Source of the DNA: Sorex araneus
Lineage: Eukaryota > Chordata > Mammalia > Eulipotyphla > Soricidae
DNA: 64,000 nucleotides
Assembly (NCBI RefSeq): GCF_027595985.1
Contig: NC_073304.1
Span: 221,378,500-221,442,499 of the forward strand
Direction: 5' to 3'
Below, piece by piece: positions 43,801 through 49,800 of the stretch (position 1 is the stretch's first letter; every line of letters begins with the position of its first letter). The translations under genes and the position numbers were made by a program. A model generated the notes under the pieces. That model had not been told where the DNA came from and did no database searches. It saw only the letters and a program-made list of their open reading frames with translations.

Positions 43801-46800
43801 CTGAGTGCAGAGCCAGGAGTAACCCAAAAAGAAAAAAAAAAGAAGAAAGAGAAAAGAAATCAATTTGAGAGATAAATTTGGAAATGAAGTGTGGAAATAA
43901 GGCAAATTCCTCTTTTTTTTTTCTCCCTCTGGGGACTTTATGGAATGCCGGGAACCAAACCCAGGATGGTCACGCGCACGCAAACGCCCGCCTGCAGTAC
44001 TATCATTCCGGCCCAATGCGAACGCCTTAAAACCAGATTGTCAGCGGGTCAGCAAAGCCCCTAAAAACGTGACAAGAGAAAACAAACGTTTGCCACAAGT
44101 ATGTGGGAGGCAGAAGGTAGACGGGACAGAGAAGGGACCGTATGACAATAATAGCTGGAGATGATCACTCTGGACAAGGAGTGAGTGCTGAAGGTAGGCA
44201 AAAGGGTACACACGATGACCTTTCAGTATCTGTACGGCAAACCCTAATGCCCTAAAGGACAGAGAACAGAAAAGCCTCTGTGGCAGGCTGGAGGGGTGCG
44301 GGATGGTGGGAGGAAAACTGGGAACACTGGTGGCGGGAAATAGACACTGGTGAAGGGATGGGTGTTGGAACATTCTATGACTGAAACCCAAGCATGAACA
44401 AGTTTGTAATTGTATCTCTGTGATTCAATTAAAGAACAAACAAAAACAAACCAAAAAAAAGACTGGATTCCCCCCTTCCCCCAAAAAAATAAAATCCCAA
44501 CCACAACAAACCCAACCAGGAACCACTATGAAATTCATGGCATAAAGATAACTTTTTCCACTCAATGACTCATTTTATTATCACGGACAGACCCATTTGC
44601 GGCCCATGCCAACCCTATGTGGTTTTATACTCTCTTCAGTCTCAGAATTATGTGCAGCATCGTAAGGCTTTAAAAACAATTTGCTGGGAACCAAGAGAAG
44701 CTCAAAAGCCAGGAGTATGTGCTCTGTATGCTGGATGCCCAGGCGGACTCCTCCAGGCACCACCAAGAGTGACCCCCGAGCCCCGAGCCAGGAGCAGCCC
44801 CTGAGCACTGCCGGACAGAACCCCGAAACAAAAATTAAGAGGGAGAAAGAAAGAATGGCACTGCTGAGTGAAGGCTGTGGCTCATTAGAGAACTTCCTTG
44901 TGTGAGAGAAAATGAGTCTTTTTAAAAAAAAATTCGAATCACTGTGAGATAGACCCTTACAAAGCTGTCCATCAGTCATACAGTGTTCCAACACCCATTG
45001 CTCCACCAGTGTACATTCCCAGCACCAGCGTCCCCAGGTTCCCCTCCATTCTCCATCTCCCTCCCTCTCCCTCCCTCCCTCCCTCCCTCCCTCTCTCTCT
45101 CCTCCCTCTCCTCTCCGCCCCCTCCTCTCTCTCTCACACACACACACACACACCACACACACACACGAGATATTTGACTGCCCACACCACATGGCAGTCT
45201 GAGCACTGTAAGGAGCAACTCCCAAACCAAAAACAGATTAAATAATATGGGCAGAGCCAGAAGGCACTTGCCCTGCACGTGGCTTTGGCAGCGGCAACCT
45301 TGGTTCAAATCCAGAGTACCACCTGTGGTCCCCTGAGTGACCAGCAAGGGTCACTCCCAAGCACAGAACCAGGAAGCACCTCTGAGCATTACCAGGTGTG
45401 GCCCAAACCCCAAAACCCTGAAAAAATGAAAAATGAAAAACAAGCTGCAGTTCCACTTTGGATCCAACTACCAAGTCTTACTCACTTCACTTATGGAATG
45501 AACTCTCTGGGCTCCGTAATGTGATTCACTGTGAAAAATTGTTTTTGTTTTGGGGCCAGCCCCTGTGGATGCTCTAGGGTTACTCCTAGCTCTGCACTCA
45601 GGAATCACTCCTGACGGTACTCAGGGGACCATATAGGGTGCTGGATGTCGACTGCATACACGGCAAAGGCACTACCTGCCTTACTATCGCGCCAGCCCTC
45701 CCCCTCTCCAGTCAGTCATTTTTAAGTACCATGGGGAAAAAAAAATTAAAAATGTGAGAGAAAAACATGTCAACCTTTAGCAACATGTTAATGATCTCTT
45801 ATAGAAGGGCCTAATGGCCCCTGGGTGAAATACAACAATCTTCACACTCTTTCGTCTAAGGATAATTTTTTGTAGCATTTTCAGCAGTTTTTCCTAACGA
45901 ATAATACAAAATACATTATTTCGGTTCTGCTTTGGGGAAGGGATTAGGGTTCGGGGTAGAAACATCCAACATATGGTGATGGGAAGGTGTAACGGTGGTG
46001 GGATTGGTATTTGAATATTTTAAATGTAATCAAATACTGTGAACTACTTTGTAAAATAAAATTTAAAAAAAAAAAAAATGTGAGAAGGACTGCGGCGATA
46101 GGGCATTTGCCCTGTGTGAGGCCAACCCGGGTTTGAGTGGAGGACCAGGAGAAACCACTGGGCATAGCCGTTTGTGTCCCAAAAGCCAAAATGAAAAACA
46201 GAAATAAGCAAAAGCCACACACGTGTGTCGGATGTGGTATTCTTGGGAGCGTACCCCTCTGTTGGCCCAAGTCTGTCCCCAAACTACTGGGAATAGCACT
46301 GATGGTCCCCCACACAATCAGGAGTGCCCCCACCAAAAAGAAAGCATCAAAGCACCATGATTCACATATGCACGAGAATCAGAAGTTTCAGGCCACTCCA
46401 TGCCTCGCTGCGGCCTCGCAGACCCCATTTCTGAGGGACGCGCTAGGCTGCAGGACAGTTCTCACTCCTTTTCTGGTTTTGGGTCATGCCTGGTCCTCTG
46501 GGGCCATTCTGACGGTGCTCAAGGGGCCATGCAGTGCCAGGAATCGAATCTGGGCGCGAGCAGATCACATGCTCAGTCCTCTGAACACTCTCACTGGCCC
46601 TGTTCTCTCCTCTTAATACAGGGGCCTCTCGCAGTGAAGGTGGGTACCGGGGGGGCCACACATGCCGGACATGTGCTCTCACTCAACTGCCCTGGCTCTG
46701 AGCAACGTTCCCAGCAGGAAAGAACAGGGAACCAAAAGGTCCCGGCAGGTCCCAAACCAGGAGGCATCAGCAGGGAAGCCGCAGGTCAGGAGTTGCTCTA

Positions 46801-49800
46801 AGACCCCCCCAGGAGAGAGCCAGACCCGAGCAGCAAGCCACACGCTGTCTTCCCACGACATCCACCAGAAGCTTCCACTGCATAAGGGTTGTGCCAGAAG
46901 CTTCTGGAAGGACCCAGAGGCTATGAAGCTGGGGAGCCCGGGCGGAGAAAACGGCAACACACTCTTCAGACAGCCACACGCGTGGCACCTTCCTGGCACA
47001 CGTGGGGAACCCGGGGCAGGGGTGAGGCTCAGGGCTGCTGCACTCGCCTCCTGGGTCCCCGGGGAAGTTCCCCCAGCCCCAAAGTCTCTCTCAGTGGACT
47101 GTGAGCAGGAGGGGCCTCTCTGCACTCGCCCGGAGAGGGGACAAAGGGCTCAGGCCTTGAGGATGGAGCTAGCTCCAAGGTCACAGGACGGGGTCGAGCT
47201 GACTGACTCTAGGCAGATGGAGAAAACAGGGTCGGGCCAACCACAGGGCCCTTGACCATGGATGAGAGGGTGCAGGGGCTGGGGGTGGGGTGGGGGGCCA
47301 GGGACGTGACTGGCAGCTGAGCCCTGCCTGGCACAGGGAGACCCTGACCCCAACTGCAGGACCCCCGTCCTCAGGCTTGGCTGGGTGCAGCCCTGGGGGG
47401 CCTAGAGCAGCCCCCATGACCAGAACTTGCGGGCAGAAGAGGGGTGCGGGTCTGAGCCAGGAGGGAGCTCGAGGGGGTGACACAGAGTGACCACACCCTC
47501 CTTCAGCCAGCTGGGGCCTGGGGCATCACCTCTGGGGTTGGCAGCTCCTCAGGGTTCTGGGGGTCCAGCGGCTGGGTCACCAGCATGTCCCCCAGGATGG
47601 TGCGCAGGTGGTGGGCCATGGTGGCCTGCTGCTCCAGCCCGCAGTGGTTCTCCAGGGACAGGATGACAGGGTATGGGGACAGCTGCGGGGGAGGAGCAGC
47701 CAGTCAGACCCCTCCCGCTCCCCCACACCATCACCCCAATACACCTGGACCTGCCCCATCGGGCGGGCAGGCTGTCTCTGGCCACTCCCTCTGGGGCGCT
47801 GAGCCTTGGCTGGGACAGGCTGGGGACAGGGCACTGCGCAGGGCGGAGGGGGAGTGGGGCTTAGGGATGGGGAGGCCTCAAGGCTGGACTCCAGGCTGCC
47901 CGGGCTGGTGCTCCAGCACCAACCTTCATGCCCTCTCTGATCTGTTTGGCAGGACCCAAAGGAAAAGCAGCAGCTTGTTTCATCGTGTTATACTAGCTGG
48001 AACACACACCTGCCCTTCGACCCACAGGTGGCACAGACAGCTGAAGGAAAAGGGCAGTTCGGCAAGTGCCCCCTGGATGCACAGCCTCCTGGAACCAACT
48101 TACTCAAAAAAGAGACCCCCATGAGTTCATGAGGGTTAGCTTCTGGAACCATTTCAGTCATTCATAAAGAATCCAGACTGAGGGGCTGGAGAGATAGTAC
48201 AGCGGGTAGGGCGTTTGCCTTGCATGCGGCCGACCCAGGTGATTCCCAGCATCCCATATGGTCCCTCGGGCACCACCAGGAATAATTCCTGAGTGCAAAG
48301 CCAGGAGTAACCCCTGAGCATTGCCGGGTGTGACCCAAAAAGAAAAAAAAATCCACACTGAAAAGTCTTGGGAACAGGTCTTCACGAAGCATCCCAGGAA
48401 GAAAGTATCATATCCTGGCATCTATTTGGATTTGGGGGTAATGAAACCAGAGGTCCCCACTGGAGTCAAATGAGTTCTCTTAAGAGCGAAGTAATTTCGG
48501 GACTGGAGAGATAGCAAGCCAATCAGGCACTTGCCCGGCACGCGGCCGATCCATACTTGGTCTCTGGTATCCTATATGGAACCCCAAGTACTACCAAGAG
48601 TGATTCCTGAGCACTGCTGGGTATGACCCAAAGTAGAAAACAGACAAAAAGAATTAAATAGTTTCTTTTCCTTTTTCTTGTTTTTTTTGGGGGGACATAC
48701 CAGGCTATGCTCAGGGGTTACTCTGGGCTCTGTACCCAGAAATCACTCCTGGTGGTGCTCGGGGAACCATATGGGATCCCGGAGATGGAACCTGGGCTGA
48801 CCACGTGCAAGGCAAACACCGCCCCCACCCCCGCTGGACCATCTATGGCTCCAACCTCTTTTTTTTTTTGCTCTTTGGATCACACCCAGCGATGCACAGG
48901 GGTTACTCCTGGCTCTGCACTCAGGAACCACCCCTGGCAGTGCTCAGGGGACCATATGGGACGCTGGGAATCAAACCCGGGTCGGCCGCGTGCAAGGCAA
49001 ACGCCCTACCCGCTGTGCTATTGCTCCAGCCCCTCCAACCTCTCTTCTTTTTCTGGGTGGGTCTGCCAAACTGATGTCCCATTTCCACTGTAAGCATCAA
49101 GGGTATACTGGGCCTTCACGAATCAGACTGGAAACCACTCCGGCATGCTGATCACTGTAATGTGCTCCAGAGAGATGGGCCAGACTCTCGGAAGACTACA
49201 TGGAACTAAAGCATGACCAAAGAATGAGCAACTATGGCTTCTTTGGGTGGGGCAGGGGTGCTGTGTCCCTGTGAGCTGGGGCAAGAGGCCGCTCACACAC
49301 CACAAGGAACATCTGCAAACGACCAACCCACTTAGGAAAGAAACCAAGAAATGTCACCTTTCAGGGCCACAGAGATAACAGAGCCGGCAGGGTGCTCGAT
49401 TTGCATGTAGCCAACCTAGGTTTGATCCCCGGCACCTCATCTGGTCCCAGGAGCTCCCCCAGGAGTGGCCCCTGAGGGCAGAGATGGGTGTGGTGAAAGC
49501 CAGAAGAGAAAAAGCAATGCCATCTCTCAGCGGAGACGAAAATTCTCAAGTCCAGACGTGAAAGAAACCCTATGGGTGCTGGGATGTAAATTCAGGGCCG
49601 GGGGAGGAGAGTTCTTATTTCGAGAAATGGTTTGGTGCCAGGAAGAGTGGGTGAGAGGAAGGGGAAGGCGCAGATGGATCAGCAGCAGGGACAGGAAACT
49701 TCCAGATCTTCCACAGAGTGAGGGTCCATAATGGAAAATCTGGGGGCTGTTTCAGGGCCTCCCCAAGTGGTGATCAGGAAGCCCGAGGGATTCTTCTGGC

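What the first reader, a model, noticed from the sequence alone, without database searches (positions are those of the whole stretch)
46741..47852. Inverted 1.1-kb copy of a PLCD3 intron-exon-intron block inside NMT1 intron 1
Seen directly: the reverse complement of 46741-47852 aligns along its whole length with 17679-18806, which spans PLCD3 intron 7, exon 8 and part of intron 8. Introns are retained and there is no poly(A) tail, so this is a DNA-level segmental duplication about 29 kb away in inverted orientation. It places a catalytic-domain exon with working splice sites on the NMT1-sense strand. Inverted repeats at this spacing could also promote inversion between the two genes.
Basis: seen in the sequence. 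Interest (0 to 1): 0.8.

Follow-up and report, generated by a model that had tools for sequence, protein, structure and literature searches.

The report
Inverted PLCD3 exon fragment in NMT1
A 1.1-kb piece of one mammalian gene (an exon with parts of its two introns) was copied, flipped, into an intron of the gene next door; it is a real but ordinary duplicated gene fragment, most likely without a function, whose exon has stayed almost unchanged, perhaps by gene conversion.

Summary
The duplication is real. Window 46740-47857 (minus) matches 17673-18807 (plus): 1026 of 1110 aligned bases identical (92.4%; 89.8% counting gap columns), 12 indels. It holds part of PLCD3 intron 7, all of exon 8 and part of intron 8, and sits in NMT1 intron 1. 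A whole-genome search (2.4 Gb) found only these two long copies. GC content (0.66 against 0.51 for the host intron) marks the NMT1 copy as the transplant. Introns are kept, and no poly(A) tail or target-site duplication was found, so it is a dispersed inverted DNA duplication and not a retrocopy.

Two interpretations fail or weaken. The splice sites are only half intact: the acceptor is unchanged, but a 1-base insertion turns the donor GTGAGC into GTGATG. NMT1 intron 1 is phase 2, so inclusion would give a premature stop. Inversion risk today looks low: the longest exact match is 142 bp.

Unexpected: the 284-bp core around the exon differs at 2 sites, the rest at 82 of 826. Later gene conversion from PLCD3 is the favoured explanation; a selected poison exon is possible but unlikely. 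Ordinary overall; no related species could be examined.

The parts
17673..18807 (+). Source segment in PLCD3: last 179 bp of intron 7, exon 8 and the first 803 bp of intron 8
17852..18004 (+). PLCD3 exon 8 (153 bp, phase 0-0, 51 aa of the PI-PLC X domain), acceptor CCCCGCAG, donor GTGAGC
46740..47857 (-). Inverted duplicate inside NMT1 intron 1
47530..47682 (-). Copied exon 8: one synonymous difference (CCC in the source, CCT in the copy), same 51-aa reading in the PLCD3 frame; TGA stop in the NMT1 frame
47524..47529 (-). Copied donor site, GTGATG in place of GTGAGC (1-nt insertion, +5 G lost)
17762..18045 (+). Low-divergence core of the source (2 substitutions in 284 bp against the copy; limits chosen by a scan), proposed conversion tract
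61065..61195 (-). NMT1 coding exon 1 (131 coding nt, ends in phase 2)
40907..41015 (-). NMT1 exon 2 (109 nt), limits read from the tblastn hit and its splice sites

Best explanation
A 1.1-kb stretch of PLCD3 (end of intron 7, exon 8, start of intron 8) was copied once, at the DNA level and in inverted orientation, into intron 1 of the neighbouring convergent gene NMT1 about 28 kb away, most likely by replication template switching or by capture during break repair (inferred). The copy is most likely a non-functional duplicated gene fragment removed with NMT1 intron 1 (inferred; no transcript data). After the copies had drifted apart, a short gene conversion, most likely from PLCD3 to the copy, reset about 280 bp around the exon (suggested by the divergence profile, not proven), and a 1-base insertion damaged the copied donor site.
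For: One full-length match, 92.4% of aligned bases. Introns kept, ends not at exon borders. Longest direct repeat between the copy's flanks is 5 bp; 1776 of 2000 random pairs of the same length share 5 bp or more. Source GC 0.666, copy 0.663, host intron 0.51, 2-kb flanks of the copy 0.497 and 0.531. Two long copies in the genome, the other 4 of 6 matches lying within the exon part of the query and reading as other PLC genes. The copy's near flanks are not part of the duplicate: 47858-48178 has 1 match in the genome, itself; 46000-46739 has 40 scored matches (of 1322 candidates), itself and 39 confined to its first 137 bases, a repeat. Three segments of similar size that I chose in the window (2 PLCD3, 1 NMT1) showed no second long copy, 0 of 3; their longest other matches were about 80, 219 and 182 bp (in one search 40 of 2878 candidates were scored). 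Heterogeneity: longest substitution-free run 179 columns, reached in 5 of 200000 shuffles; best low segment 17762-18045, reached in 0 of 300 shuffles; intronic sites in that tract 1 of 131 against 82 of 826 outside (post hoc).
Against: Exon constraint in PLCD3 accounts for part of the low divergence, and the shuffles do not remove it. With intron 7 as the yardstick (7 of 175) the exon is not significantly low (Fisher p=0.07; Poisson P 0.09-0.19). With the exon removed the best low segment is broader and milder (17680-18314, 22 of 477; 2 of 300 shuffles), which a regional rate difference could also give. The tract limits were chosen by scan. No outgroup was available, so the direction of conversion, the order of events and the age are inferred. 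Substitution directions and CpG counts (38 source, 33 copy) do not polarise the pair.
Confidence: 0.8

Rival explanations
1. Poison exon: the copied exon is sometimes spliced between NMT1 exons 1 and 2, adds a premature stop and lowers NMT1 output through nonsense-mediated decay; selection on this use keeps the exon unchanged.
For: Acceptor identical over the 28 nt compared; 153-bp exon with one difference; inclusion gives TGA after 34 new residues. Exon against all introns Fisher p=5e-5.
Against: The donor, which such use would need, is the part that was damaged (score 6.19 to 2.20; U1 pairing -9.7 to -6.8 kcal/mol). Low divergence also runs 90 bp upstream and 41 bp downstream of the exon. 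No transcript data.
Confidence: 0.05
2. No conversion: the low divergence of the core is only purifying selection on PLCD3 exon 8 plus a regionally lower mutation rate on the intron-7 side.
For: The intron-7 part already differs less (7 of 175) than intron 8 (76 of 782), Fisher p=0.016; by the intron-7 rate the exon count of 1 is not unusual.
Against: By the intron-8 rate 7.4 copy-lineage changes are expected in the exon and 1 is seen (Poisson P=0.005); permutation tests reject uniform spacing, though they do not allow for exon constraint.
Confidence: 0.3
3. Assembly artefact: the second copy is a misplaced piece of PLCD3.
For: No reads could be inspected here.
Against: 84 substitutions and 12 indels separate the copies, one near flank is unique and the other is unique beyond a short repeat, and both copies sit in one contig of more than 221 Mb.
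Confidence: 0.02
4. Inversion substrate: the two arms recombine recurrently and flip the 28 kb between them.
For: Inverted, about 28 kb apart, up to 142 bp of exact match. PMC2583991 section 7 notes exceptions with homology shorter than 114 bp.
Against: Identity about 92% and exact match near the low end of the quoted 134-232 bp range; most disease-causing events there use repeats over 96% identical. An inversion would split PLCD3 around exon 8 and NMT1 after exon 1, and PLCD3 exon 8 (phase 0) would meet NMT1 exon 2 (phase 2) out of frame (phases; consequence inferred).
Confidence: 0.05

Closest known systems
Segmental duplication (intrachromosomal, inverted, interspersed)
   Same: DNA-level copy with introns, over 1 kb, about 90% identity, same chromosome, inverted
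   Different: At the small, old end: 1.1 kb and 89.8-92.4% depending on how gaps are counted; passages of PMC4546093 give a median span of 36 kb for its set of human gene duplicates
Unprocessed (duplicated) pseudogene fragment
   Same: Single exon with parts of both introns, no other PLCD3 exon in the copy, damaged donor
   Different: Its reading frame is still intact, so it is a fragment rather than a visibly decayed pseudogene
Interlocus gene conversion between duplicated genes
   Same: Short tract of raised identity between diverged copies; identity above 80% and same chromosome, conditions described in PMC3924818 (section 2.1 read)
   Different: Inferred from one pair without outgroup

Membership tests
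Segmental duplication | Length of at least 1 kb (definition recalled) | tested here: met
   1118 and 1135 bp
Segmental duplication | Identity of at least 90% (definition recalled) | tested here: inconclusive
   92.4% over aligned bases, 89.8% with gap columns
Segmental duplication | Not a high-copy interspersed repeat | tested here: met
   Two long copies in the genome; the 4 further matches fall within the exon and read as other PLC genes
Retrocopy (processed pseudogene) | Introns removed | tested here: not met
   Intron 7 and intron 8 parts retained
Retrocopy (processed pseudogene) | Poly(A) tail and target-site duplication | tested here: not met
   No A run at the ends; longest flank repeat 5 bp, chance level
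Functional alternative exon of NMT1 | Usable acceptor and donor | tested here: inconclusive
   Acceptor unchanged, donor weakened to GTGATG
Functional alternative exon of NMT1 | Reading frame kept through the exon | tested here: not met
   Phase-2 intron, TGA inside the exon
Functional alternative exon of NMT1 | Transcript support | not testable with these tools
   No RNA data held
Interlocus gene conversion | Local tract of excess identity beyond chance | tested here: inconclusive
   5 of 200000 and 0 of 300 shuffles reach it, but exon constraint is not removed there; with the exon removed a different, broader segment is best (2 of 300)
Interlocus gene conversion | Copies cluster by species in the tract across species | not testable with these tools
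   No related mammal held (one search says this genome has no relatives here)

The most novel reading that the evidence does not exclude
The inverted PLCD3 exon is retained as a lineage-specific poison exon in NMT1 intron 1, its sequence held by selection or by repeated conversion from PLCD3, so that a neighbouring gene's exon tunes the output of N-myristoyltransferase.
Probability: 0.04. Interest if true: 0.55.

Novelty: new member of a known kind. Interest (0 to 1): 0.25.

Why it matters
It shows a complete exon, with its acceptor, moved by DNA duplication into a neighbouring gene's intron and then staying nearly identical while its introns drifted. That is a small, testable case for whether gene conversion between inverted copies preserves stranded exons, and a caution for gene annotation, since the copy still reads as an intact piece of a PI-PLC X domain.

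Tried and rejected
Retrocopy origin: rejected (introns kept, no tail, no target-site duplication). Origin carried by a high-copy repeat: rejected (two long copies in the genome; no SINE hit falls inside either segment). NMT1-PLCD3 fusion protein through the copied exon: rejected (frame). Antisense pairing between the two normal pre-mRNAs: rejected by orientation (both would carry the exon in the sense direction; inferred). Polarising by substitution direction or CpG loss: gave nothing. The letter-reversed copy as a BLASTN control gave one 40-column hit at 85% (E 7e-5), inside the copy's own region, against 1143 columns for the true match.

Paper searches, of which I saw listings with abstract starts: NMT1 with PLCD3 (16 papers, 10 listed), shrew SINEs (137 papers, 12 listed; none), segmental duplication with inverted orientation, exon, intron and gene conversion (31 papers, 12 listed), minimal processing segment (8 listed), Sorex interstitial telomeric (15 papers, 10 listed), exon shuffling with duplicated exon (none), Sorex araneus segmental duplication (7 listed). 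None of the listed titles is about this duplication; I make no wider claim of absence from print. Papers opened: PMC3924818 (passages and section 2.1), PMC2583991 (passages and section 7), PMC4546093 (passages), PMC3961182 (passages; not relied on).

Full report
Observation. BLASTN of 46001-48600 against the window gives one long match, the minus strand of 46740-47857 against 17673-18807, 1143 columns, 89.85%, E=0. In the global alignment 1110 bases align with 84 substitutions (63 transitions, 21 transversions; K2P 0.081) and 12 indels, and similarity is lost at both ends. Identity is 92.4% over aligned bases and 89.8% with gap columns.

Setting. tblastn with recalled human proteins places PLCD3 on the plus strand from 7051 to 21555 and NMT1 on the minus strand from 61195 down to 26228. 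Of 5 exons given to Pfam, 5 matched: PI-PLC-X for PLCD3 exons 7 and 8 and for the copied exon, NMT and NMT_C for two NMT1 exons. The best match of exon 8 among solved structures is PLC delta-1. Eight PLCD3 exons join to an open frame of 465 codons, and 17852-18004 is the eighth. The copy lies between NMT1 exons 1 and 2.

Copy number. In the 2.4-Gb genome the segment has 6 matches (6 of 6 candidates scored): itself, the PLCD3 source, and 4 short matches limited to the exon. Those 4 read as the matching exon of other PLC genes, and 2 of them (L003, L006) also show neighbouring PLC exons in the fetched DNA. Three control segments of similar size that I chose in this window had no second long copy, 0 of 3; their other matches were paralogous exons or repeats, the longest about 80, 219 and 182 bp (in one search only 40 of 2878 candidates were scored). 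The flank 47858-48178 matches only itself. The flank 46000-46739 has 40 scored matches of 1322 candidates: itself, and 39 confined to its first 137 bases, a repeat. The tool warns that it skips simple repeats and very common words.

Origin and direction. Introns are retained and neither a tail nor a target-site duplication was found. GC is 0.666 in the source and 0.663 in the copy, against 0.51 for NMT1 intron 1 and 0.497 and 0.531 for the 2-kb flanks of the copy, which together with the exon's place in PLCD3 makes the NMT1 segment the copy. CpG counts and substitution directions were close to symmetric and gave no polarity. Template switching during replication can place a fragment in direct or inverted orientation (passages of PMC2583991); that it acted here is inferred. 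Outside the low-divergence core K2P is 0.108; with recalled mammalian rates of 2.2-4.5 per billion years per site this is very roughly 12-25 million years.

Splicing. The copied acceptor is unchanged over the 28 nt compared. The donor is GTGATG instead of GTGAGC through a 1-base insertion; a score from recalled human base frequencies falls from 6.19 to 2.20 and U1 pairing from -9.7 to -6.8 kcal/mol. NMT1 exon 1 ends in phase 2 and the copied exon is phase 0-0, so inclusion reads 34 foreign residues and then TGA.

Uneven divergence. Intron 7 part 7 of 175, exon 1 of 153 (synonymous), intron 8 part 76 of 782. The longest substitution-free run is 179 columns (5 of 200000 shuffles as long). The best low segment is 17762-18045 with 2 of 284 (0 of 300 shuffles); the intronic sites in it show 1 of 131 against 82 of 826 outside (post hoc). 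Against this, the shuffles do not allow for exon constraint; with the exon removed the best segment is 17680-18314, 22 of 477 (2 of 300 shuffles), and against intron 7 the exon is not significantly low (p=0.07). Conversion is favoured, since the core passes beyond the exon on both sides and the copied donor is broken, but it is not proven. A review (PMC3924818, section 2.1 read) says conversion occurs mainly above 80% identity, falls with distance, and gives a minimal segment of roughly 200 bp in rodents.

Inversion. The longest exact match is 142 bp. PMC2583991 section 7 reports a 20-fold drop in intrachromosomal recombination when uninterrupted homology fell from 232 to 134 bp, 300-500 bp for human meiosis, and exceptions below that. 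A present-day inversion hazard thus looks weak, and an inversion would break both genes (inferred).

Verdict. A real, single, inverted, dispersed duplication of a gene fragment: a new member of a known kind, most likely without function.

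Noticed in passing
15520-15696: PLCD3 intron 3 has AT-AC ends (ATATCCTGGC ... TTCCTGAGCGTCCACAC), the look of a minor (U12-type) intron (consensus recalled).
   Followed up: partly
27627-28885: About 1.2 kb of telomere-like repeat in an NMT1 intron, in one orientation: 27601-28900 holds 100 TTGGGG, 34 TTAGGG, 27 TTAGGT and 6 TTGGGT, and none of the five motifs counted on the other strand.
   Followed up: partly
38640-38990: SNORA5-like sequence (38656-38766, minus; Rfam 42.1 bits) followed by an A-rich stretch, with a SINE set right at its 5' end between near-identical TGCAGCCGTG and TGCAGCTGTG: looks like a snoRNA retrocopy hit by a SINE.
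   Followed up: partly
9969-10041, 11918-11990, 42451-42523, 48956-49028, 58233-58305, 58931-59003: Six SINE heads are called as tRNA-Ala (TGC) genes by ARAGORN; 42446-42602 and 48877-49033 are 98.7% identical inverted SINE copies, both in NMT1 intron 1.
   Followed up: no
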